IMG/VR virus record: IMGVR_UViG_3300028854_000016
Coordinates: 1 to 64,000 of that record
DNA: 64,000 bases
Strand: one strand, 5' to 3'
Origin: a virus
Part shown: positions 7,544-61,047 of the stretch, one piece after another
Layout: every line of letters starts with the position of its first letter
How positions within the stretch are numbered: position 1 is the first letter of the stretch
Notes under the pieces: generated by a model
The model's database searches: none
Told to the model about the DNA's origin: nothing
The model's input: only the letters and a program-made list of their open reading frames with translations
Made by a program: the position numbers and the translations under genes

Positions 7544-8707
7544 ATGAAAGAAGTTATTGAAGCATACAATTATGCAAAAGAAAATAAGATTTCTTTAAGA
7601 AAAACTTCAATTGAATTAAGAAAAAATCCAATTGTGTTAGACTGGATAGATACACATTGCGATCCAAAACTTAATAAGAGACAACATGCCAAAAAATTGT
7701 ATTCAGCAGTTCATAATGGATTTTCATTTATTTGCATACATGGATTTGAATTTGGAATATCTGAATATATTGAGTTGAAATTTCCAAATAATATGAAAAA
7801 TGGATGTTGTTCATGTTATGAAGCATATATAAAATCAGATTATATGATTAAAAAAGTAGTTAATTCAAATAAGTTACAGAAGCAAACAAAGATAAAAAAA
7901 TATGGCGAATCATATGCTAAAGTTATTTCTAAAAAATGCATTAAAACTAATTTAAAGAAATATGGGGTTGAGTGGTCATCTCAAAATGAAGATATTCATA
8001 TGAAGTCGAAGCAAACTTGCAGAGAAAGATATGGAGCAGAGTTTCCATTGCAGTGCAATGATATTAAAGATAAAATGAAAATCGATTCTTTACAAATATA
8101 TGGAGTTGAATATCCAATGCAAAGCAATGTTGTTAAACAACATGTAATTGAAAATAATATTAAAGAACATGGGTGCCATCCTACACAATTGCATATCGAT
8201 GAAAAAGTAAGAGAAATTCTACAAAATAAAAATAAATTTTCAACATTATTGCAAGTTAATTCAGTTCATTCTTTGGCTAAACAGTTCAAAGTTAGTGATT
8301 ATTTAATTTTAAAAACACATAATAATTTTAAGCTTGATATTATCAAATCCAATTTAAGTTTATATGAAAATGAAATAGCGAATTGGTTACAAAGTATAAA
8401 TTTAATATTTAAACGAAAAGATAGAAAACATATTGGCAGAAAAGAATTAGATTTTTATTTTCCAGATTATCAATTTGCCATTGAATTCCAAGGAACTTTT
8501 TGGCATGGGCATGAAAGTTTATTTAAAGAAACAGATATTCACCCTATTTCTGGGAAATTAATTAAAGATATAAGAGAAGCAGATAACTTAAAAGCAAAAT
8601 TATGTGAAGAAAAAGAGATCGATTTATTTTGTATATGGGAACATGAGTGGAAACTAAATAAAGAAGAGATCAAGAAGCAAATTCTTGTCAAATTAGGATT
8701 GGTGTAA
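7544..8707 (+). CDS. Vsr-like (EDxHD) homing endonuclease, intact
   Basis: A 387-residue protein. Residues about 100-220 are tandem DNA-binding units of about 23 residues with the pattern K-x-T-x-x-K-Y-G-V-(E/x)-x-(P/S)-x-Q. A 'SVHSLAKQFKVSDYLILK' helix-turn-helix-like stretch follows. The C-terminal nuclease has YENEIANWL, KELDFYFPDY, AIEFQGTFWHGH and a final IWEHEW, which are the E, D, H positions of the Vsr-like family typified by I-Bth0305I. It lies directly before the portal gene, itself a common homing target. It has no decay and is probably active. Confidence 0.85.
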   Translation: MKEVIEAYNYAKENKISLRKTSIELRKNPIVLDWIDTHCDPKLNKRQHAKKLYSAVHNGFSFICIHGFEFGISEYIELKFPNNMKNGCCSCYEAYIKSDYMIKKVVNSNKLQKQTKIKKYGESYAKVISKKCIKTNLKKYGVEWSSQNEDIHMKSKQTCRERYGAEFPLQCNDIKDKMKIDSLQIYGVEYPMQSNVVKQHVIENNIKEHGCHPTQLHIDEKVREILQNKNKFSTLLQVNSVHSLAKQFKVSDYLILKTHNNFKLDIIKSNLSLYENEIANWLQSINLIFKRKDRKHIGRKELDFYFPDYQFAIEFQGTFWHGHESLFKETDIHPISGKLIKDIREADNLKAKLCEEKEIDLFCIWEHEWKLNKEEIKKQILVKLGLV

Positions 8708-8709
8708 TT

Positions 8710-11700
8710 ATGGCCTGGAAAAAATATTTCAAAAAAGCAACGCCAAATCAAGATGGGGTTTTTAGTCCTCTTTCTCGACGCGGTGGCAGAAGCACTGGAG
8801 AAGACGCAGTTGGTGTAAATAGTTATCCAAATCTTATTCAAGAGTCATATCTTGGATGCCCAAATCGTATAGAAAGATATCAGAATTTTGAAAGTATGGA
8901 TCAGGATTCAGAAGTGAACTCTGCCCTTGATATTTTAGCTGAATTTAGCACTCAAAGCAATGAGCAAGATAATATGTGTTTTAACGTAAAATTTAAAGAA
9001 CCTCCGACAGAAACTGAATCTAAAATTATCAAAAAGCAATTGCAGTCATGGTATTATTTGAATGAATTCAATAAAAGAGCATTTAGATTGTTTAGAAATG
9101 TTATTAAATATGGTGACCAAATCTTCCTTCGTGACCCAGAAACATTTAAATTATTTTATGTAGAAATGGATAATGTTATTAAAGTAATTGTAAATGAAAG
9201 CAAAGGTAAGAAGCCAGAACAATATATTATTCGTAATATGGCTCCAAATTTTGAAAATTTAACAGCAACACAAGTTACAGCAAATAATCTTTATAATGTT
9301 GTTCCCAGTGGGCCAGGATTTAATGCTGCTGGTTCTGGATATAATGCTCCCAATAGTCCTTACAGTTCTAGTAGTAGATTTACAAAAGGATTAAATGAAC
9401 ATGCTATTAATGCAGAACATATTCTTCATCTTTCATTGACTGAAGGACTTGATCCCAATTGGCCATTTGGTAATAGTATTTTGGAGTTAATTTTTAAAGT
9501 TTATAAACAGAAGGAGTTACTGGAAGATAGTATTATCATTTATCGTGTTCAGAGAGCGCCAGAACGTAGAGTGTTCAAAATTGATGTTGGAGATATGCCT
9601 CAGCATTTGGCAATGGCATTCATTGAAAAAGTAAAAAATGAAATGCACCAACGTAGAATTCCAGGAAGATCAGATGGTGGAAATTTTCAAGATTCTACAT
9701 ATTTTAGTATGGCTCCAAATGCTGATTTTTTCTTTCCCATCACTTCCAGCGGTCGAGGATCTTCAGTTGAGCAATTGGCAGGTGGCTGCTTAAAAATGGA
9801 TACTAAAGTTCCATTATTAGATGGTAGAACGCTTTCATTAATTGAATTAACTGAAGAATTCCAAGAAGGTAAAGAGAATTGGGTGTATAGTTGTAATCCA
9901 GAAACAGGAGAAGTAGTACCAGGAATTATTTCTTGGGCAGGAGTAACTCATGAGTCTGCCCAAGTAATGAAAATAACTCTTGATAATGAGGAAGAAATTA
10001 TTTGTACTCTTGATCATAAATTTCCCATCCTAGAAAAAGGATTCGTTGAAGCAAAAGATTTGAGTATTGGAGAAAGATTTATTCCTTTTAATATTCAAAA
10101 TAGAGAAATATTAAAAACTAGAAAAAAACAATATACACAAGTATATCAAAATAATACTAAAAAATGGGAATTTGTTCATAGAATGATAGCTCATTGTTTA
10201 GCATTAGAAAATTTTGTTTTTGATGAGCAATATAAAAATAGTAAAAAAGATGTAATTCACCATAAAAATTTTAACAGATTTGATAATTCTCCTTCTAATT
10301 TGGTTAGAATGGCATTTAAAGATCATACTGATTTTCATTCTTATTATGGATTTAGTAAGGATAGTCAAGTTCTTGGTACTATTGCTGCAAAAGAAAAAAT
10401 GGAATTTATTAAAATTAACTATCCAGAAAAATATAAAAAGTTAATGAAAGAAAAAGGAAAGCGTCATAAAGAATTTTGGGCTTCTTTAAATATAGAAGAA
10501 AGGCAGCAATATATTGATATTAAAAAAATCGGATTGCAGAATTATTTTAAAAATTTAACAGATAAAGAAAGAAATATTCGTATTGAAGAAATGATGCCAA
10601 CTATTAATAGTTTAATTAAAGCATCTAAAGATAAGTTAGAAAAAATGAATACAGATGAAGATTATTATAACTGGGTTTGCGAGCATCAGCAAAAAGGTTG
10701 GGATAAATTTAAGAAAACACCAGAAGCAAAAATTCGTGGAAAGAAAATTGGAAATGATAATCGTTTAAGATTTTCTCGCCCTGGTTATACAGAGAATGTT
10801 TTTAAAAACCAAAGAGTAAAAGTTGATAAACAAACATTGGATTATGTTCAAAGTTTGGTTTTACAAAAAAATAAAATTAAAATAGTTGAAGCAATTAAAT
10901 TATTTAATGACACAGATGAATATTTGAATTATTATTTAAATTTAAATAAAGAAACTTGCTGCGCAAATTGGAATAATGATAGATTGACTGGAAGCCAATT
11001 AAGAAATGCATTGAAAATTCGTGGATATAAAAATTGGAAGCAATTCAGAGATGAAGTTAGATTATATAACCATGCCATAGTATCAATTGAATATTTGTCT
11101 GAGCCAATACAAGTTGGAACTTTAACTATTGATAAAGATGAAAAATATCATAATTATCATACTTTTGCTTTGGCTAGTGGAATTTTTACAAAAAATTCTA
11201 ATTTGAATGAAATTGATGATTTAAAATACTTTAATAATAAGATGATGCGTGGATTAAGAATTCCGAGTAGTTATCTTCCAACTGGTCAAGATGATAGCCC
11301 TTCAACAATAAATGATGGAAGAGTTGGCACAGCATTAATTCAAGAATACAGATTTAATCAATATTGTGAAAGACTCCAAAAATTGGTTTGTGATCCTTTA
11401 GATTTGGAATTTAAAGCATATTTAAAATGGAGCGGAATTAATATTGATTCAAGTATGTTTCAATTGACTTTTAATCCACCACAAAATTTTGCTCACTATA
11501 GACAAGCAGAATTAGATAGTTCTAAAATTAGCACATTTACTCAATTAGAAGGATATCAATATTTTAGTAAGAGATTTTTGATGGAACGATATCTTGGTAT
11601 GACTTCTGAAGAAATCAATGAAAATCAAAAATTATGGAGAGAAGAAAATGTATCTCCTGATCAAATTGAATCAGAGCCTTCTGACTTGAGAAATCTTGGT

Positions 11701-11871
11701 ATAACTGCTGGTGGTATTGATTCAGACTTACAAAACTTTGGTGGTGAAGAAGGTATGGGAGAAGAAATGCCAGAAGGCGGAGAAGAAGCTGCTCCTGGGG
11801 AAGGCACACCAGAAGGAGCTAATACTCCAGTTGCTGCTCAAGGCCCTGCACCAACTAGCTCAGGCGCTTAA
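8710..11871 (+). CDS. 20: Portal vertex protein gp20, interrupted by an in-frame intein
   Basis: The reading frame has 1053 codons; removing the 470-residue intein leaves a portal of about 583 residues (T4 gp20 is 524). The N-extein holds the portal signature around SALDILAEF and the YKQKELLEDSIIIYRVQRAPERRVF helix. The C-extein resumes at SNLNEIDDLKYF, the conserved 'GGxNLxEIDDxxYF' portal motif, which is exactly where the intein sits. The C-terminus is an acidic Gly/Glu/Pro tail. The portal is the DNA gate of the head and the docking site for terminase. It is followed by small head genes and a late box. Confidence 0.93.
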   Translation: MAWKKYFKKATPNQDGVFSPLSRRGGRSTGEDAVGVNSYPNLIQESYLGCPNRIERYQNFESMDQDSEVNSALDILAEFSTQSNEQDNMCFNVKFKEPPTETESKIIKKQLQSWYYLNEFNKRAFRLFRNVIKYGDQIFLRDPETFKLFYVEMDNVIKVIVNESKGKKPEQYIIRNMAPNFENLTATQVTANNLYNVVPSGPGFNAAGSGYNAPNSPYSSSSRFTKGLNEHAINAEHILHLSLTEGLDPNWPFGNSILELIFKVYKQKELLEDSIIIYRVQRAPERRVFKIDVGDMPQHLAMAFIEKVKNEMHQRRIPGRSDGGNFQDSTYFSMAPNADFFFPITSSGRGSSVEQLAGGCLKMDTKVPLLDGRTLSLIELTEEFQEGKENWVYSCNPETGEVVPGIISWAGVTHESAQVMKITLDNEEEIICTLDHKFPILEKGFVEAKDLSIGERFIPFNIQNREILKTRKKQYTQVYQNNTKKWEFVHRMIAHCLALENFVFDEQYKNSKKDVIHHKNFNRFDNSPSNLVRMAFKDHTDFHSYYGFSKDSQVLGTIAAKEKMEFIKINYPEKYKKLMKEKGKRHKEFWASLNIEERQQYIDIKKIGLQNYFKNLTDKERNIRIEEMMPTINSLIKASKDKLEKMNTDEDYYNWVCEHQQKGWDKFKKTPEAKIRGKKIGNDNRLRFSRPGYTENVFKNQRVKVDKQTLDYVQSLVLQKNKIKIVEAIKLFNDTDEYLNYYLNLNKETCCANWNNDRLTGSQLRNALKIRGYKNWKQFRDEVRLYNHAIVSIEYLSEPIQVGTLTIDKDEKYHNYHTFALASGIFTKNSNLNEIDDLKYFNNKMMRGLRIPSSYLPTGQDDSPSTINDGRVGTALIQEYRFNQYCERLQKLVCDPLDLEFKAYLKWSGINIDSSMFQLTFNPPQNFAHYRQAELDSSKISTFTQLEGYQYFSKRFLMERYLGMTSEEINENQKLWREENVSPDQIESEPSDLRNLGITAGGIDSDLQNFGGEEGMGEEMPEGGEEAAPGEGTPEGANTPVAAQGPAPTSSGA
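9787..11196 (+). mobile_element. Intein with embedded HNH endonuclease in gp20
   Basis: It covers residues 360-829 of the portal frame. It begins with Cys after LAGG (CLKMDTKVPLLDG, block A). Block B-like 'CTLDHKFPIL' contains the conserved T-x-x-H variant (LDH). It ends in HTFALASGIFTKN followed by Ser+1. The middle holds an HNH core: DVIHHKNFNRFDNSPSNL, then two His residues downstream. The usual penultimate His of block G is Lys here (K828-N829). Splicing remains plausible, since natural inteins lacking this His are known. Confidence 0.88.
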
Positions 11872-27594: not shown

Positions 27595-28752
27595 TTATAT
27601 TACCTCTATCGTATTTATGGATTTATTTGAAATATATTGTAGTATATCATTTTTGATTTCTTCTTTTTTAGAATTCCAGTCCAATTCCCATATGATCATT
27701 AAATCAATTTCTTTTTCTTTGCACAATTTTGATTTTCGCGCATCTCTTTCCCATATTTTTTGAGCACTTCCCTTGCATTTATTAATATCGTGTTCATTAT
27801 ATTTTCTAGGGTCCATGTGCCAATAAGTTCCTTGAAATTCAATAGCGAAATTTATATTGGGACAGTAAAAATCAAGTTCAAATTTTTTTAAGGGTTTCCA
27901 AGTATTTGATACAAATTGTATATTATTTTCATTTAAAAAATTGGAAAGCTCAAGCTCATAACTTGAAGTCCCAGTATCTGTTATAATATTTAAATTATAT
28001 CGTTTATGATAATTGTAAATAGTTACTGGAGTACATCCTAATATTTTTGATAATTTAATAACTCCATATTTTATTAGCATTTTAGTAAAAACATCTTTAT
28101 TTTCAAGTATTTTAATAGTTTCTTGAGAGAAATGTTTTTGAGCATAAAAAGAAACTCCATTATTTTCTATACAAGTATCAATTTTTTGTTGTTTAACTTT
28201 TGGATTTTTAGATGGATTATCATAACCAGAATTTTTCATACAGGTATTTTTGATAATTTTTTGAACTTTTTCTTCTCTCATGGGATGGCCACTAACATAG
28301 TTTTTTATAAATGTTTCTTTTATTCGAGTTTTGATAATAGAAGATTTTGATGGATTATTGACTCCCCAATTTTTAATAAACTTTTGTTTATTTTCTTCTT
28401 TAATTTTTTCTGATTTTCCAGGATTATCTGTTCCATATTTTTCTAAACAGGTTTCTTTAGTTCTATATTGAATACATTTACAGCCACGTTTACAGCTAAA
28501 TTTATGTGTCGATGGCCTGTATTTTTGTTTATTTCCATATGAACAAATTAATTCAAAATTAGGATTTAAAATTAAAAAAATTTTTGATCCCAAAGAATCA
28601 TTAAAATTAGAATATAAATTATTAATTTCGTCATTTATCCATTTTAATAAATCTTTATGATCATTGTTTCTAATTAAATTAATAAAATATGGAGATTCCT
28701 TTTTTAATTTTAAAATTTCTCCAACAGCATTTTCACGAGTATAAATATTCAT
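27595..28752 (-). CDS. Vsr-like (EDxHD) homing endonuclease, intact
   Basis: About 385 residues from the Met at 28752 (MNIYTRENAVGEILKL), chosen because the paralog at 40242 begins the same way; an earlier in-frame Met lies at 28770. It has the Cys-rich block CKRGCKCIQYRTKETC and several K-Y-G/N-x-x-N-P-(G/S)-K units. A 'LSKILGCTPVTIYNYHKRY' helix-turn-helix follows. The nuclease has SYELELSNFL, FELDFYCPN, AIEFQGTYWHMD and IIWELDW. It sits in the neck operon, right before gp14. Confidence 0.85.
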   Translation of the reverse strand: MNIYTRENAVGEILKLKKESPYFINLIRNNDHKDLLKWINDEINNLYSNFNDSLGSKIFLILNPNFELICSYGNKQKYRPSTHKFSCKRGCKCIQYRTKETCLEKYGTDNPGKSEKIKEENKQKFIKNWGVNNPSKSSIIKTRIKETFIKNYVSGHPMREEKVQKIIKNTCMKNSGYDNPSKNPKVKQQKIDTCIENNGVSFYAQKHFSQETIKILENKDVFTKMLIKYGVIKLSKILGCTPVTIYNYHKRYNLNIITDTGTSSYELELSNFLNENNIQFVSNTWKPLKKFELDFYCPNINFAIEFQGTYWHMDPRKYNEHDINKCKGSAQKIWERDARKSKLCKEKEIDLMIIWELDWNSKKEEIKNDILQYISNKSINTIEVI

Positions 28753-28818
28753 AAGCTGATACTTCTCCATACACAGTATTAGAGTAGTCGAGGACCCCTA
28801 TTCCTGTGGTCTGCATTA

Positions 28819-31691: not shown

Positions 31692-31704
31692 ATAATATTG
31701 ATAT

Positions 31705-32982
31705 ATGAAATTAAAAGAAATATTAAAACAACTGGAAGAATTAAAATTAGAGTCCCCATATTATATCACTTTGATTAATCAAATGCCAAAATATTTGAAA
31801 TTAAAAAATAGCATTAATAATGAATTCAAAAAGTTGTATCCAAATATAAAAGAAAAATCTCTTGTAGCTAAAATTTTCGCCATTAGAAATCCAGAGATAA
31901 GTATAATTTGCCCATACACGCAAAAGAAAAAGAAATATAATTATTCCCAAAAAAGATATGTTTGTCCAAATACTTGCCAATGTACCAAAGATTATACTAT
32001 AGAAAGATGTATGACAAAACACGGAGTTACTTCAACTAATAAATTGGCTGTAACAAAAGAAAATAAAAAGAATGCGTATATTAGATTATGGGGTGTTGAT
32101 AATCCATCTAAAGTTCCAGAAATTCAAGAACAGAAAAAGATAACAAGTATTAAAAATTGGGGTTGTGAATTTCCATTACAATCAGAAGAAATAAAAGAGA
32201 AAGGAAGAAAAACTAATTTATCAATTCGTGGTGTGGAATATGGTATGCAGGACTCAGTAATTAGAGAGAAAGCCAGAAAAACTAATTTAAAAATTAGAGG
32301 AGTGGAATATCCTTCCCAAGATAAATCAGTAAAAGATAAGATTAAACAAACAAATTTAAAAAATTGGAATTACGAAAATACTTCTAAATCTCCTCCAATA
32401 AAACAAAAGAAAATAGAAACATCATTGCGTAATTTTAATAGAGAATATGGAACACAACGTCATTTAACTTTGGAAGCTATTGATATTATCAATGATAAAG
32501 AAAAATTTGCGAAAGTTTTATTAAAATATGGGTCAAGTGGGGCAGTTGGTATATTGGGAATTAATCAATCATCCATTAGTAGAATACATTCAAAATATGG
32601 TTTAGCTATATTAAAAAATCGATATAGTTCTTATGAAAATGAAATTGAAACTTGGTTAAATGATAATAATATTGATTACCTAAGAAATGATAGAATTCAA
32701 ATTGGACCAAAAGAATTAGATTTTTATTTTCCTAGACATAATGTAGCAGTAGAATTTCAAGGAGATTATTGGCATATGAATCCTTCTTTATATGAAGCTG
32801 ATGATTTAAATGCTCAAACAAATAAACAAGCAAAAGATATATGGAAATATGATCAAGATAAATTTAATAAATGTAAATCTAATGGTATTAAATTAATAAT
32901 TATATGGGAATCTCAATGGGAAGATAATAAAGAGCAAATAAAAGAAAATATTCTTGCTATTCTCAAAGAAAAGGAGTTATAA
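31705..32982 (+). CDS. Vsr-like (EDxHD) homing endonuclease, intact
   Basis: A 425-residue protein. It has an N-terminal helical part and a Cys block (CPNTCQCT). About six units follow of the pattern K-T-(N/S)-x-x-x-(R/W)-G-(V/C)-E-(Y/F)-P-(S/L)-Q. The middle 'AVGILGINQSSISRIHSKYG' is helix-turn-helix-like. The nuclease has SYENEIETWL, KELDFYFPRH, AVEFQGDYWHMN and IIWESQW. Between the gp13-like gene and the 32989 gene. Its start lies 6 nt after a TATAATAT box, with no ribosome site. The MKLKEIL start looks like the injected-protein leader but probably by chance. Confidence 0.85.
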   Translation: MKLKEILKQLEELKLESPYYITLINQMPKYLKLKNSINNEFKKLYPNIKEKSLVAKIFAIRNPEISIICPYTQKKKKYNYSQKRYVCPNTCQCTKDYTIERCMTKHGVTSTNKLAVTKENKKNAYIRLWGVDNPSKVPEIQEQKKITSIKNWGCEFPLQSEEIKEKGRKTNLSIRGVEYGMQDSVIREKARKTNLKIRGVEYPSQDKSVKDKIKQTNLKNWNYENTSKSPPIKQKKIETSLRNFNREYGTQRHLTLEAIDIINDKEKFAKVLLKYGSSGAVGILGINQSSISRIHSKYGLAILKNRYSSYENEIETWLNDNNIDYLRNDRIQIGPKELDFYFPRHNVAVEFQGDYWHMNPSLYEADDLNAQTNKQAKDIWKYDQDKFNKCKSNGIKLIIIWESQWEDNKEQIKENILAILKEKEL

Positions 32983-38479: not shown

Positions 38480-39509
38480 ATGGTGTATACAAAAGAATTA
38501 GCAATAAAAGAAATTAACAGACTTAAAAAAATTTTTACTAAACCAAGTGTTGAAGCAAAAAAAGACAAAGATTTAGTTAATTGGATCAATAAAGAAATAG
38601 AGAAAAATTATCCCAATTTAAATGAATCATTATCTGCAAAAATGTGGTTGGTTCTGCATGAAGGATATAAATTAATATGTCCTTATGGAAATAAAAGAAA
38701 ATTTTGTAGACGAAGTAGAAATGAGCCACAATTTAATTGTGTTACTTCATGCCAATGTACTATTGAAAATAGGAACAAAACAATTATAGAAAAATATGGC
38801 GTATTGGGTTTATTATCAATTCCAGAAAATCAAAATAAATTAGTAAAAACTTGTTTGGAGAAATATGGCTCAAAAAGCGCAAATGGAAACAAGGATATAA
38901 TGAAGAAACAAATTAATACTAGAAAAAATAAATGTATGATTAAATATGGAGTCTCTCACGAAAAGCAAATACATTTTTCAGAATATGCAAAAGAAATATT
39001 GAATAATAAAGAAAAATTTAGTGAAATGATTTTAAAATTGGGATCACGAGAAATGGCAAAGCAACTTAATGTTAGTCAAAGTACTATTGTAGTATATCAT
39101 AAAAATTAGAATTGAATGTAATTTCCAGAACCAGATCATGTTATGAAATAGAATTAGAAAATTGGCTAATTGACCAAAAATAAAGTTTATATCTAATGAT
39201 ATGAAAATAATAAAACCAAAAGAATTGGATTTTTATTTACAAGATTATAATATTGGTATAGAAATTCAAGGAAATTATTGGCATGGGAATCCAAAGAAAT
39301 ATAAATCAACTAATATGATTCGATCTAATCGTGGTTTGATTTCTGTGGCTGAAATATGGAAGAAAGATGAATACAAAAAGAAATTATGTCAAAATAAAGG
39401 AATTAAATTGTTAGTGTTTTGGGAAGATGAATGGTTAGAAAATAATGATAAAATTAAAAAGACAATTTTAGAAAATTTGCCTTGTGGGATAAATACTTAC
39501 AAGAAGTAA
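38480..39509 (+). pseudogene. Vsr-like (EDxHD) homing endonuclease with two frameshifts
   Basis: Start at 38480 (MVYTKELAIKEINRLKKIF), as in its paralogs. The first frame runs to a stop at 39107-39109. The protein continues in another frame (RTRSCYEIELENWLIDQK, the first nuclease Glu) and then in a third from about 39183 (KELDFYLQDY, EIQGNYWHGN, VFWEDEW). Both shifts fall in runs of A (near 39104 and 39178). Between sheath and tube genes. Inactive as read, unless the A runs are sequencing errors. Confidence 0.75.
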
Positions 39510-40241: not shown

Positions 40242-41718
40242 ATGTCTATTTATACATACGAATCAGCACTCGCAGAAATTATCAGATTGAAATCAAAAAC
40301 TCCGTATTATGTTAACTTAATTAGAAAAATTGAATATAAATCATTGCTTGAGTGGATTAATATCCAAATTCCTGATGAAAAATACACAATAGGAGCAAAA
40401 ATTTTTCTTTTGCTTAACTCAGATTTAGAATTAATATGCCCATATGGAAAAGAAAAGAAATACAGAGCAGATTTATCTAAATTTGTTTGTATTAAATCGT
40501 GTCAATGTACAAAAGATAATAGATCCAAAACAAATGTTGATGTTTATGGATCAAGCTGTCCTTTGAAAAGCATAGAAGTGCAAGAAAAGAGAAAAAATAC
40601 TTGTATAGAATTGTATGGAGTTGATCATCCATCTAAATCAGAAGAAATTAAGAATAAAAAGAAACAAACCTGCATTAAAAATTTTGGTTATGATAATAAT
40701 TTAAAATCCCCAAAATGCAGAGAGAAGCGAAAGAAAACAATGTTAGAAAAATATGGATACGAAAATCCAGGAAATTGCCCAGAAATAATAGAAAAACAGC
40801 AAAACACTTGTATGGAAAATAATGGAGTTTCCTTCCCCTTTCAAGCAAAAGAAATTCAAGATAGAGTTAAGAAAACAATGTTAGAAAAATATGGATACGA
40901 AAATCCAGGAAATTGCCCAGAAATAATAGAAAAACAGCAAACCACTTGTATGGAAAGATATGGAGTTAATACTCCTTTTGACTCAAAAGAAATTCAAGAA
41001 AAAAGCAAAAATACACGAGAAAAAAATTATAAATTAAATTCTGTAATCAAAAAATCTAATGAAAAATTAAAAAATATAAGTATTTATGGAAAAGAAGATC
41101 CTACTAGTAAAGAAAAAGCAATAAAATATAAGAAAAACTAATATACAAAAATATGGAACTGAATGGTCAGTTCAAAAACATATTACTTCAAAATCTTTAG
41201 AAATTCTAAATTCTAAAAAATTATTAAATGAGATGTTAGAAAAAAATTCATTTGATGAAATATCAAAATTATTAGGAGTTACTTATTCTACAATTAATAG
41301 AAGATACAGAAAACACAATCCAGAAAAACCCTTGATTAAAAGGTCAAGTTCATTTCAAAATGAAATTGCTTGTTGGTTAATACAAGAAAATATAAAATTT
41401 ACTGAAAAAAATCGCACAATTTTAAAAAATAAAATTAAAATTAAAAATTTAAAAACAAAAGAATTAGATTTTTATCTTCCAGATTATAAAATTGGAATTG
41501 AATTCAATGGAACATATTGGCATATGGACCCAAGAAAATATAAATCAATTGATTATAATGAAATTGCTAAAAAGACAGCTCAAGAAATTTGGGATAAAGA
41601 CAAATATAAAGAAGATTTATGCAAATCATTGGATATAAAATTAATAGTTATTTGGGAGCAAGACTGGAAATCCAACAAAGAACAAATCAAAACAAATATA
41701 CTATCCCAACTTAGCTAA
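40242..41718 (+). pseudogene. Vsr-like (EDxHD) homing endonuclease with one frameshift
   Basis: The first frame (40242-41141, 299 residues) has the leader MSIYTYESALAEI, the Cys block CIKSCQCT and eight K-Y-G-type units. At the A run near 41134 the frame shifts; the second frame continues K-T-N-I-Q-K-Y-G-T-E-W-S and joins the 41233-41718 open frame with FQNEIACWL, KELDFYLPDY, GIEFNGTYWHMD and VIWEQDW. Removing one A restores a single protein of about 490 residues. Between tube and tube-initiator genes. Confidence 0.8.
40731..40953 (+). repeat. Near-identical 138-bp tandem duplication inside the endonuclease
   Basis: 40731-40815 and 40869-40953 are nearly identical over 85 bp, a 138-bp period. 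This equals two DNA-binding units of 23 residues (MLEKYGYENPGNCPEIIEKQ in both). A recent duplication. Confidence 0.8.
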
Positions 41719-55761: not shown

Positions 55762-56694
55762 ATGGCAAAGCCTTTTGATGTAAGTCGTTTTAGGAAAAGC
55801 ATAACCAAATCAATAGAAGGCATGAGCATTGGTTTTCGTGATCCAAAGATTTGGATTTCAACTGGAAACTATTGTCTTAATTATTTAATTAGTGGAAGAT
55901 TTGATACAGGCATCCCGTTGGGAAAAATTACAGTATTTGCAGGCGCTCCAGGAGCAGGAAAATCATTAATTGTATCTGGAAATATTATAAAAGATGCACA
56001 AGAACAGGGAATTTATGTAATTTTAATTGATAGTGAAAATGCTCTTGATGAAGATTGGTTGAAAGCATTGGGAGTTGATACAAGCGAAGATAAGTTACTG
56101 AAATTAAATATGGCAATGATTAATGATGTTGCTAAAATGATCAGTGATTTTGTTAAGCAATATAAATTGATTCCAGTTGATGAACGACAAAAAGTATTAT
56201 TTGTGGTTGATTCTTTGGGTATGCTTTTAACTCCTACTATGGTAAATCAAATGGAAGCAGGATCTATGAAAGGAGATATGGGAATTAAAGCCAAACAGCT
56301 AAAAGCAATGATTATTAATTGCGTTAATATGTTTGGTGATCTCGATATAGGAATGGTGGCAACAAATCATATCTATTCTTCTCAAGATCAATATTCAGAT
56401 GATATAATTTCAGGCGGGTGTTTAACAAATGATCATAAAATACAGTTAGTTAACGATGAGTTAAAATTAATTGGAGATATTAAAGTTGGTGATATTGTTA
56501 AAACTTTGGATGGCGATAAAGAAGTTACAGAAACTTATAATTATCTTGATAAAGAAGTGTTTGAATTACAACTAGAGGATGGGCAAATTATTAAAGCTAC
56601 TTCGGAACATAAATTTTTAGTAGAATCTGATGATGGTTATATTTGGAAAAAAGTAGCAGATTTAAATGAAGAAGATGAAATCTTATCCCTTTAA
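55762..56694 (+). CDS. uvsX: Recombinase UvsX, N-terminal part fused to N-intein
   Basis: 310 residues. Residues 1-219 are the RecA-like N-extein, with Walker A G61-A-P-G-A-G-K-S68, LIDSENALD and VVDSLG (Walker B). They end at I-S-G-G in the L2 region. Residues 220-310 (56419-56691) are an N-intein: Cys1-L-T-N-D-H-K-I-Q-L, KVGDIVKTLDG, then 'KATSEHKFLVESDDGY' (block B) and a stop. The 91-residue length is close to natural split N-inteins (88 in gp41-1). The rest of UvsX is at 56859-57389; protein trans-splicing would give about 357 residues (T4 UvsX: 391). Confidence 0.92.
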   Translation: MAKPFDVSRFRKSITKSIEGMSIGFRDPKIWISTGNYCLNYLISGRFDTGIPLGKITVFAGAPGAGKSLIVSGNIIKDAQEQGIYVILIDSENALDEDWLKALGVDTSEDKLLKLNMAMINDVAKMISDFVKQYKLIPVDERQKVLFVVDSLGMLLTPTMVNQMEAGSMKGDMGIKAKQLKAMIINCVNMFGDLDIGMVATNHIYSSQDQYSDDIISGGCLTNDHKIQLVNDELKLIGDIKVGDIVKTLDGDKEVTETYNYLDKEVFELQLEDGQIIKATSEHKFLVESDDGYIWKKVADLNEEDEILSL

Positions 56695-56722
56695 TCCTGA
56701 TCCTCCACTAATATTATCATAA

Positions 56723-56878
56723 ATAAGAGCAAAAAATATATGGAATGAAGATAATGAGAGAATAGAAGCAATAAAACGTCTTAGAAATTTTAAAGTATTC
56801 ATTGTTTGGGAAAGTGAAGCGAAATTAATGATAACTAAAATTAAAGAGGAAATTAAAAATGAAATCAATAAAAATTAA
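56723..56878 (+). pseudogene. Remnant of a Vsr-like homing endonuclease between the split-intein halves
   Basis: A 51-codon frame after a stop codon: I-R-A-K-N-I-W-N-E-D, then LRNFKVFIVWESE, then 'TKIKEEIKNEI'. This matches the extreme C-terminus of the endonucleases in this window (e.g. K-I-W-E-R-D...IDLMIIWELDW...EEIKNDIL). It runs into the start of the C-intein gene in another frame. The N-terminal and catalytic parts are deleted. The layout is the known fractured-gene pattern, with a decayed endonuclease. Confidence 0.75.
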
Positions 56879-57389
56879 ATCAAAGCAATGTATTGGAATT
56901 AAGCCAGTTTACGATATTCAAGTAAAAGATGCTCATCATTATATATTAGAAAATGGAGTAATAAGTCATAATAGTGGTTTTCTCTTTGCCAGCAGTATTA
57001 TTGTATCAATGGATGTTTTTAAGTTAAAACAAGATGAAGAAGGAAACAAAACTAAAGAAGTTGCTGGAATTAGATCAAAATGTAAAGTGGTAAAATCCCG
57101 TTATAATAAACCGTTTGAATCAGTGGAAATTCACATCCCGTATGCTTCAGGAATGGACCCATATTCAGGATTGTTCGATTTATTTTTTGAAAAACAGCAT
57201 TTACTTACTAAAGCTGGCAATAGATATGTTTATACTGACTTAACTGGAGTAGAGCATTCACATTGGAAGAAAGATTATCTAACAAATAAAGATCAAATTC
57301 TTGATTTGATAATGAAAGAATTTGATCCAGAAAAAGTAAATATGACTAGTACTGTGGAAGATATTTCAGAAGAAACAGAAGAAGAATAA
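56859..57389 (+). CDS. uvsX: Recombinase UvsX, C-intein fused to C-terminal part
   Basis: 176 residues. Residues 1-38 (56859-56972) are a C-intein: MKSIKIKSKQCIGIKPVYDI, then D-A-H-H-Y-I-L-E-N-G-V-I-S-H-N (blocks F and G with the His-Asn end). Ser39 is the +1 residue. Residues 39-176 are the UvsX C-extein (SGFLFASSIIVSMDVF..., acidic end). The gene has its own ribosome-binding region (aaagagg) inside the endonuclease remnant. Together with the 55762 gene it makes UvsX by trans-splicing. Confidence 0.92.
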   Translation: MKSIKIKSKQCIGIKPVYDIQVKDAHHYILENGVISHNSGFLFASSIIVSMDVFKLKQDEEGNKTKEVAGIRSKCKVVKSRYNKPFESVEIHIPYASGMDPYSGLFDLFFEKQHLLTKAGNRYVYTDLTGVEHSHWKKDYLTNKDQILDLIMKEFDPEKVNMTSTVEDISEETEEE

Positions 57390-57459: not shown

Positions 57460-57705
57460 ATGACCAAAGAAACTCCTGAACTTATCGCTGAATGCTGGTT
57501 GCTTTTAGTGGAATACATCCCACGCAGAGATCATATTCCAGCCGCTGAACAATTATTGACATATTTAGAGTCTGTGTTGGACAAAGAAGAATTGGCAGAA
57601 ATTGCAGATTTGGATGCTGATTTATCTAAAGCATACGATGTTATTTCAGAAGAAAATTCAGATGAATATGATGATGATTTTGATGATACTGAAGAGGATG
57701 AGTAA
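57460..57705 (+). CDS. Small acidic protein between uvsX and the uvsY-like gene
   Basis: An 81-residue protein. 'ELIAECWLLLVEYIPRRDHIPAAEQLLTYL' is a helical domain and the end is Asp/Glu-rich (DEYDDDFDDTEEDE). Similar small proteins are common beside recombination genes of marine T4-like phages, without known function. Start at 57460 after aaagga; an in-frame upstream ATG lies at 57439. It shares one base with the next gene (TAATG). Confidence 0.6.
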   Translation: MTKETPELIAECWLLLVEYIPRRDHIPAAEQLLTYLESVLDKEELAEIADLDADLSKAYDVISEENSDEYDDDFDDTEEDE

Positions 57706-58163
57706 TGTGGTATAACAAAATAGTTTCCAATATTTCACTAATTCCTGATATGATATCATATTATGAAGGTGAATTATTGGAAGCTAAAAAAGAAGTTAGT
57801 ATATATGGAAACTTAGAAAAGAATTTGGCTTGTCTTCCTGGTCAAACTGAATTTAGATTTTATCAACTTCAGGAAATTGAAGCTATCCTAAATTATCTCA
57901 ACATAGAATTAAGAAAGATTCAACAAAAATATTTCAAACAATATTCAGAATCATACAATAAAGCATTGACAAGTAGGGAATCTGAGAAGTATGCATCAGG
58001 AGAACAGGATGTTTGTGATTTTGAAATGATCATTAATGATGTTGCATTGGTAAGAAATAAATATTTGGGAATCCTTAAAGGCCTTGAATCTAAAGGATTT
58101 CAATTGAGTAGTATTACAAAGATTAGATGCGCTGGAATGGAAGATGTAACAATATCAAAATAA
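57705..58163 (+). CDS. uvsY: Recombination mediator UvsY-like
   Basis: A 152-residue helical protein (T4 UvsY: 137). The tail order fits T4 UvsY: 'SEKYASGEQDVCDFEMIIND' and 'VALVRNKYLGILKGLESKGFQLSSITKIRC'. This corresponds to the 'L-x-x-D-x-D...A-I-x-S-R-G-F-x-I-x-x-I' end of T4 UvsY. It loads UvsX onto gp32-covered single-stranded DNA. The position after uvsX agrees. Ends in a bidirectional terminator. Confidence 0.75.
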   Translation: MWYNKIVSNISLIPDMISYYEGELLEAKKEVSIYGNLEKNLACLPGQTEFRFYQLQEIEAILNYLNIELRKIQQKYFKQYSESYNKALTSRESEKYASGEQDVCDFEMIINDVALVRNKYLGILKGLESKGFQLSSITKIRCAGMEDVTISK

Positions 58164-60477: not shown

Positions 60478-61047
60478 ATGAATGAAAAAGCACAACTGGC
60501 TGCTGTTCAACAAAATGGTCGTGCAATTGAATACATCGACAATCCAAGCGAAGCTGTGCAACTGGCTGCTGTTCAACAAAATGGTTGTGCAATTTACCAC
60601 ATCAGCAAGCCAAGCGAAGCTGTGCAACTGGCTGCTGTTCAAGAAGATGGTTGTGCAATTGAATACATCAGCAAGCCAAGCGAAGCTGTGCAACTGGCTG
60701 CTGTTCAAGAAGATGGTTATGCAATTCAATTCATCAGCAATCCAAGCGAAGCTATGCAAATGGCTGCTGTTCAACAAAATGGTTATGCAATTCAATTCAT
60801 CAGCAATCCAAGCGAAGCTGTGCAACTGGCTGCTGTTCAAGAAGATGGTTGTGCAATTCAATTCATCAGCAATCCAAGCGAAGCTGTGCAAATGGCTGCT
60901 GTTCAAGAAAATGGTTATGCAATTCAATTCATCAGCAATCCAAGCGAAGCTGTGCAACTGGCTGCTGTTCAACAAAATGGTTGTGCAATTAAATTCATAA
61001 AAAATCCAACAATTAATGTCAAATTAGTGGCTAAATTGCTGTCTTAA
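60478..61047 (+). CDS. Early protein made of eight 22-residue repeats
   Basis: A 189-residue protein. It consists of eight units of the pattern S-E-A-V-Q-L-A-A-V-Q-x-x-G-x-A-I-x-x-I-S-x-P, then a short end. Each is probably a helix pair, giving a solenoid for protein binding; the pattern recalls DUF4116-type repeats. The 49758 protein carries diverged copies behind its ART-like domain. The DNA repeats (66 bp) are very similar, so the array is young. Open frames on the other strand and in another frame are only by-products of the period of 66. Confidence 0.75.
   Translation: MNEKAQLAAVQQNGRAIEYIDNPSEAVQLAAVQQNGCAIYHISKPSEAVQLAAVQEDGCAIEYISKPSEAVQLAAVQEDGYAIQFISNPSEAMQMAAVQQNGYAIQFISNPSEAVQLAAVQEDGCAIQFISNPSEAVQMAAVQENGYAIQFISNPSEAVQLAAVQQNGCAIKFIKNPTINVKLVAKLLS
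60547..61008 (+). repeat. 66-bp tandem coding repeats
   Basis: Copies begin at 60547, 60613, 60679 and every 66 bp onwards, each starting agcgaagctgtgca or a variant. Seven full copies follow a partial first copy at 60478. The spacing is exact. This is a coding repeat, not a CRISPR array. Confidence 0.85.

What the first reader, a model, noticed from the sequence alone, without database searches (positions are those of the whole stretch)
55762..57389. uvsX recombinase broken in two by a split intein with a decayed homing endonuclease between the halves
The N-half ends in a 91-residue N-intein (Cys220 to stop) and the C-half starts with a 38-residue C-intein (ends S-H-N, then Ser+1). Together they restore a UvsX of about 357 residues. 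The frame at 56723-56878 is a 51-codon C-terminal remnant of the same Vsr-like endonuclease family found elsewhere in the window. This is the fractured-gene layout known from phage metagenomes, here in the recombinase that itself drives homing, with the endonuclease lost. UvsX function, and so homing of all other elements, would depend on trans-splicing. The insertion is after ISGG in the L2 DNA-binding loop.
Basis: partly seen in the sequence, partly recalled or inferred. Interest (0 to 1): 0.93.

Follow-up and report, generated by a model that had tools for sequence, protein, structure and literature searches.

The report
Split-intein recombinase gene with endonuclease scar
A giant-phage recombinase gene (uvsX) is broken into two pieces that should be stitched together as proteins by a split intein; the DNA-cutting enzyme that once sat between the pieces has decayed to a short scar, and relatives show every stage of this process, so it is a clear but not unique case of a known kind of gene break.

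Summary
Window 55762-56694 encodes UvsX residues 1-219 plus a 91-residue N-intein. Window 56859-57389 encodes a 38-residue C-intein (ends HN) plus Ser+1 and 138 UvsX residues. A second contig is identical across the locus. The site directly follows the conserved Gly-Gly of DNA-binding loop L2. The frame between the halves is confirmed as the C-terminal scar of an EDxHD/Vsr-like homing endonuclease. It is 61% identical to the tail of an intact endonuclease at exactly this site in a related phage (L122), and its catalytic core is deleted. The Shine-Dalgarno of the C-half lies inside the scar, which probably explains why that piece survives. Both intein halves are conserved and keep the splicing residues, so trans-splicing of UvsX is by far the best reading, though untested. 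The arrangement is not unique: about 45 non-redundant split-uvsX loci at this site were found, including T4-like isolates (Yersinia TG1, Escherichia HY03, Shewanella Thanatos-1) and a Lak megaphage. In several lineages the endonuclease is lost. The claim that all homing in this phage depends on trans-splicing is untested and overstated. New member of a known kind; it helps document a full cycle at one site.

The parts
55762..56418 (+). UvsX N-extein, residues 1-219, ends ISGG (end of loop L2)
   Evidence: ORF; phrog_97 1e-47; RecA/UvsX fold in AF2 model, pLDDT 84, top PDB hit UvsX 7z3m
56419..56694 (+). N-intein, 91 residues from Cys1, block B TSEH, then stop (TAA 56692-56694)
   Evidence: PF14890 4.1e-8; 57-60% identical to N-inteins of L122/L120/L001 at the same site; gp41-1 and DnaE inteins in PDB
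56690..56878 (+). Homing endonuclease scar: C-terminal remnant of an EDxHD/Vsr-like endonuclease; frame holds one internal TAA (56720-56722), then 51 codons 56723-56875 and TAA 56876-56878
   Evidence: 61% identical to the tail of the intact endonuclease at the same site in L122, 2.7e-15 in a small search set; matches EDxHD endonucleases in the window and in L103/L104
56845..56850 (+). Shine-Dalgarno-like AGAGGA of the C-half, encoded inside the Lys-Glu-Glu codons of the endonuclease scar, 8 nt before the ATG
   Evidence: sequence; SD-like motif at 37/45 C-half starts versus 13% of random ATGs in the same loci
56859..56972 (+). C-intein, 38 residues, ATG start, ends His-Asn
   Evidence: ORF; 63-79% identical to C-inteins of L122/L120/L001
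56973..57389 (+). UvsX C-extein, 138 residues, begins Ser+1
   Evidence: phrog_97 2.4e-14 and PF00154
54649..55674 (+). Context: gp32-like single-strand DNA binding protein upstream
   Evidence: phrog_1192 4.6e-57
57705..58163 (+). Context: UvsY-like recombination mediator downstream
   Evidence: phrog_231 1e-12

Best explanation
uvsX was invaded at the end of the L2 DNA-binding loop by an intein whose coding sequence is split. An EDxHD/Vsr-like homing endonuclease gene sat between the two parts, as it still does in L119, L120, L122 and L123. In this phage about 950 bp holding the endonuclease start, DNA-binding part and catalytic core were lost. Left behind is a ~60-codon scar that overlaps, and contains, the ribosome-binding site of the C-half. 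The two halves lie close together on one strand, between the SSB and uvsY genes, and are probably co-transcribed. The acidic N-intein and basic C-intein associate, fold into one HINT domain, excise themselves and join ISGG to SGFL, giving a 357-residue UvsX. Shown: layout, homology, endonuclease loss, position of the SD, conservation of both intein halves. Inferred: trans-splicing, co-transcription, and the reason the scar is retained.
For: Layout and identities. Same locus in a second contig. Intact endonuclease at the same site in the nearest split relatives, with the scar matching its tail. Purifying selection on both intein halves: dN 0.14-0.33 with synonymous sites saturated or nearly so (dS about 1.3 or more), against L122/L120/L001. 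Splicing residues Cys1, block-B T/SxxH, terminal HN and Ser/Thr+1 in 49/49 loci (partly circular because many loci were retrieved by an HN[ST]G pattern, but the same residues are seen in loci retrieved by N-intein alone). Charge: N-intein -13, C-intein +3. Relatives in the same lineage carry the intein in one piece (L127: 132 aa) or have an empty site (L002-L005). Isolated phages carry the same split. Extein tree: window, L120, L122 (both with endonuclease) and L002, L004 (empty) form one fully supported group.
Against: No splicing, expression or proteomic data. The record is a 72.6-kb fragment, so a second intact recombinase gene elsewhere in this phage cannot be excluded (only one match in the held record). 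dS is saturated, so selection strength is not quantified. Charge opposition is only partial across the family (25 of 45 loci have a negative N-part with a positive C-part).
Confidence: 0.9

Rival explanations
1. The halves are stable separate subunits that assemble without splicing (as reported for the split NrdA of phage Aeh1 and split gp43 of phage 25), and the intein pieces are inert tails.
For: Split phage enzymes that work without ligation are known (PMC2988022).
Against: Both intein pieces keep the catalytic residues and evolve under constraint. The break lies in the L2 DNA-binding loop inside the ATPase core, where a gap plus a 91-residue tail should hurt function.
Confidence: 0.06
2. 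The locus is a dying pseudogene: recombination is supplied by host RecA or by another recombinase, and the halves drift.
For: T4-type homing can use host RecA (PMC2988022); the record is incomplete.
Against: Both extein halves are intact and conserved (dN well below dS), gp32-like and UvsY-like neighbours are present as full-length matches, and the C-half has an intact start and SD.
Confidence: 0.03
3. The gap is a sequencing or assembly artefact or a self-splicing RNA intron in an otherwise continuous gene.
For: None found.
Against: Identical second contig; no Rfam intron; the same break with an intact endonuclease in relatives.
Confidence: 0.01

Closest known systems
Fractured genes: split intein with a free-standing homing endonuclease between the gene halves (Dassa et al. 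2009, doi 10.1093/nar/gkp095; paper not held, seen here only as cited in other papers, details from memory)
   Same: A DNA-metabolism enzyme is broken by a split intein, and the intervening gene was an endonuclease of the Vsr/EDxHD family named in that work
   Different: Here the endonuclease is gone except for a tail. Whether UvsX was among the enzyme types listed in 2009 could not be checked
Fractured uvsX of isolated Straboviridae: Yersinia TG1, Escherichia HY03, Salmonella SEA1, Pseudomonas PspYZU05, Shewanella Thanatos-1, Vibrio EniLVp02 and VmeM-32
   Same: Same insertion position after GG of L2, same N-intein/C-intein break, C-half with its own start
   Different: An endonuclease-like gene is still present between the halves, annotated or matched as GIY-YIG/NUMOD3 type where identified; +1 is Thr rather than Ser; their UvsX belongs to the T4 branch
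Split UvsX loci L122, L120, L119, L123 (IMG/VR) in the same giant-phage UvsX lineage
   Same: Same site, same split; N-intein 53-60% and C-intein 68-79% identical to the window's in L122, L120 and L119, lower in L123
   Different: Intact 338-422 aa EDxHD-type endonuclease between the halves
Cis mini-inteins at the same UvsX site: L127-L134, L100, L150 and Salicola phage SCTP-2 gp204
   Same: Same site and homologous intein
   Different: Contiguous, 132-136 aa, no trans-splicing needed; SCTP-2 has a second intein in the P-loop
gp41-1 and DnaE split inteins
   Same: HINT fold and class 1 splicing residues; sequence match in PDB
   Different: Different host genes; split activity here not measured

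Membership tests
Naturally split class 1 intein | Cys1, block B T-x-x-H, C-terminal His-Asn and Ser/Thr/Cys at +1 | tested here: met
   C220, TSEH, SHN, Ser+1
Naturally split class 1 intein | HINT-fold homology of N- plus C-part | tested here: met
   PF14890 on both halves; joined halves match DnaE and gp41-1 structures; AF2 of the N-half gives beta strands in the intein part at pLDDT about 82-92
Naturally split class 1 intein | Two parts on separate polypeptides with their own stop and start | tested here: met
   stop 56692-56694, SD plus ATG 56859
Naturally split class 1 intein | Protein trans-splicing activity | not testable with these tools
   needs co-expression
Fractured gene (split intein plus endonuclease) | Conserved DNA-metabolism enzyme broken in two by a split intein | tested here: met
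   phrog_97 on both halves
Fractured gene (split intein plus endonuclease) | Free-standing endonuclease gene between the halves | tested here: not met
   only a C-terminal scar in the window; present in L119, L120, L122, L123. The window locus is therefore filed as an endonuclease-less derivative
EDxHD/Vsr-type homing endonuclease (the scar) | Homology to the C-terminal part of the nuclease domain | tested here: met
   2.7e-15 to the L122 tail, 61% identity; also matches HEGs at window 31702-32979 and in L104
EDxHD/Vsr-type homing endonuclease (the scar) | Catalytic D...E...WH core | tested here: not met
   alignment shows the scar begins after the WH-NP motif
UvsX/RecA recombinase | Walker A, Walker B, L2 Gly-Gly and RecA fold | tested here: met
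   GAPGAGKS, VVDS, ISGG; PDB fold hits 7z3m and 9gbg UvsX

The most novel reading that the evidence does not exclude
The end of the UvsX L2 loop is a nearly mutation-proof, heavily used intein site at which the endonuclease tail doubles as the ribosome-binding region of the C-half. Loss of the endonuclease then locks the gene in the split state (a ratchet towards permanent gene fission), and the retained trans-splicing step acts as a timing or damage-sensitive switch on recombination, as has been proposed for recombinase inteins elsewhere (from memory).
Probability: 0.12. Interest if true: 0.75.

Novelty: new member of a known kind. Interest (0 to 1): 0.5.

Why it matters
The locus and its relatives show empty site, split intein with endonuclease, split intein with scar, split intein with almost no gap, and contiguous intein at one site in one gene. 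This makes the order of events in gene fission by inteins directly testable. The gene is the recombinase that can carry out homing itself, and T4-like phages grown on laboratory E. coli carry the same intein site, so trans-splicing can be tested in a real infection. The intein pair is also a candidate split-intein tool.

Tried and rejected
RNA intron: none in Rfam. Assembly error: rejected by the identical contig L083. Cyanophage hits S-RIM32, S-RIM8 and S-PM2: looked split from annotation but are uninterrupted uvsX. L096 and L102-L105 from the N-intein scan are not uvsX; L103 and L104 are split-intein loci in what looks like a ribonucleotide reductase (judged by sequence only) and helped identify the scar. 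L113 (Lak-A1) is a different gene. Window endonuclease 31705-32982 has no PDB sequence match; 7544-8707 matches Vsr only weakly (0.2). Literature: no open-access paper holds both 'split intein' and 'uvsX'; of the nine papers with 'intein' and 'uvsX', four were searched by term and none describes an intein in uvsX; Dassa 2009 is not held, so UvsX may or may not be in its list. Selection on the scar itself: inconclusive, because most divergence may predate endonuclease loss.

Full report
Observation. Both halves match UvsX (phrog_97) and both carry intein signal. The joined intein matches DnaE and gp41-1 inteins of known structure. The window lies in an IMG/VR record of 72,594 bases; a second contig, L083, is identical over the whole locus. 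No RNA intron is detected.

Position. The window sequence NHIYSSQDQYSDDIISGG^SGFLFASS aligns by eye with the loop L2 region of E. coli RecA ending in Gly211-Gly212 (RecA sequence from general knowledge). Those two glycines are reported as completely conserved even in UvsX, RadA and Rad51 (PMC2663765). A site that can hardly mutate is a safe target for a homing element. AF2 gives the N-half a RecA/UvsX fold with a beta-strand appendage where the intein lies (pLDDT 84; PDB hits 7z3m and 9gbg), and the contiguous relative L127 likewise matches UvsX and RecA.

The middle frame. An HMM of the window frame and its L001 counterpart matches the C-termini of EDxHD/Vsr-like endonucleases, among them one at 31702-32979 of this window (family assignment). 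A scan with the C-half then found the locus in closer relatives with the endonuclease intact: L119, L120, L122 and L123 (all four hit phrog_22677, as do several of the window's own endonucleases). The window frame is 61% identical to the last 49 aligned codons of the L122 enzyme. It begins just after the WH-NP motif and holds a stop, so the catalytic core is gone. About 950 bp are missing relative to L122 (gap 1120 versus 164 nt).

Why a tail is left (inference). The C-half ATG lies inside the endonuclease tail, and its Shine-Dalgarno is made of tail codons: AAA GAG GAA in the window, AAA GAG GAG in L122. An SD-like motif precedes 37 of 45 C-half starts, versus 13% of random ATGs in the same loci. 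Deleting the endonuclease therefore has to spare its last codons or provide another SD. L001 keeps a tail as well.

Function. Cys1, TxxH, HN and Ser+1 are intact, and both intein parts evolve with dN far below saturated dS. Splicing residues are constant in 49 loci, with the caveat that part of this set was retrieved by an HN[ST]G pattern. Trans-splicing is thus inferred with high confidence but not shown. Dependence of other homing events on it is not shown; host RecA is an alternative in T4 (PMC2988022).

Distribution. Forty-five full-length non-redundant split loci plus several contiguous ones were found at the same site. They span T4-like isolates with GIY-YIG/NUMOD3-type endonucleases, metagenomic phages whose endonucleases carry HNH/NUMOD3 domains, and giant-phage relatives of the window; Lak-B5, read with TAG as Gln, is a further case. 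phrog_8337 and phrog_18112 are in effect the two halves of this broken UvsX. On the UvsX extein tree the endonuclease-less state needs at least 8 changes, so its presence or absence has switched repeatedly. The window groups at full support with L120 and L122 (endonuclease present) and L002 and L004 (empty). L162 and L184, close in UvsX, differ in endonuclease presence. Uninvaded giant-phage relatives mostly carry Gln at +1 (73 of 83 loci not deduplicated, 4 Asn, 4 Ser, 2 unread), which cannot serve as a splicing nucleophile; invaded ones carry Ser or Thr.

Novelty. The kind, a split intein in a fractured gene, is known. Fractured uvsX exists in public isolate genomes, annotated as two RecA-like or recombination proteins. 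No open-access paper found here describes a split intein in uvsX, but the key 2009 paper could not be read. The window adds an endonuclease-less member with a readable scar and a plausible reason for that scar.

Noticed in passing
L189:2593-6558 (second contig L191): UvsX broken into THREE ORFs by two split inteins, each gap holding its own endonuclease-like ORF; the middle extein is only 11 residues (SMFPTAVISGG). L191 is 99.98% identical over L189 5067-9169, covering the downstream part of the second break.
   Followed up: partly
L195:4589-6645: UvsX with a split intein after LNHTY and a contiguous intein 13 residues later at the GGG^C site.
   Followed up: partly
L081 (Salicola phage SCTP-2 gp204): Isolate phage UvsX, annotated hypothetical protein, with two contiguous inteins: one inside the P-loop and one at the L2 site of this finding.
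   Followed up: partly
window 8710-11871: T4-like portal protein interrupted by a contiguous intein (residues about 368-817) with an HNH-type domain.
   Followed up: no
window 7544-8707, 27595-28770 (-), 31705-32982, 39201-39509, 41233-41718: At least five EDxHD/Vsr-related endonuclease genes; the last two are truncated, so this phage holds several stages of endonuclease decay.
   Followed up: partly
L116 (Prevotella phage Lak-B5): Lak megaphage split uvsX with a 463-aa endonuclease-like ORF between the halves, readable only with TAG as Gln.
   Followed up: partly
window 60493-61009: 66-bp-period tandem array (DUF4116-like repeats) whose length differs between the window and the near-identical contig L083.
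   Followed up: no
L002-L088 empty sites: Uninvaded UvsX genes of this lineage mostly carry Gln at the +1 position (ISGGQG), which cannot act as splicing nucleophile; a possible barrier to invasion.
   Followed up: partly
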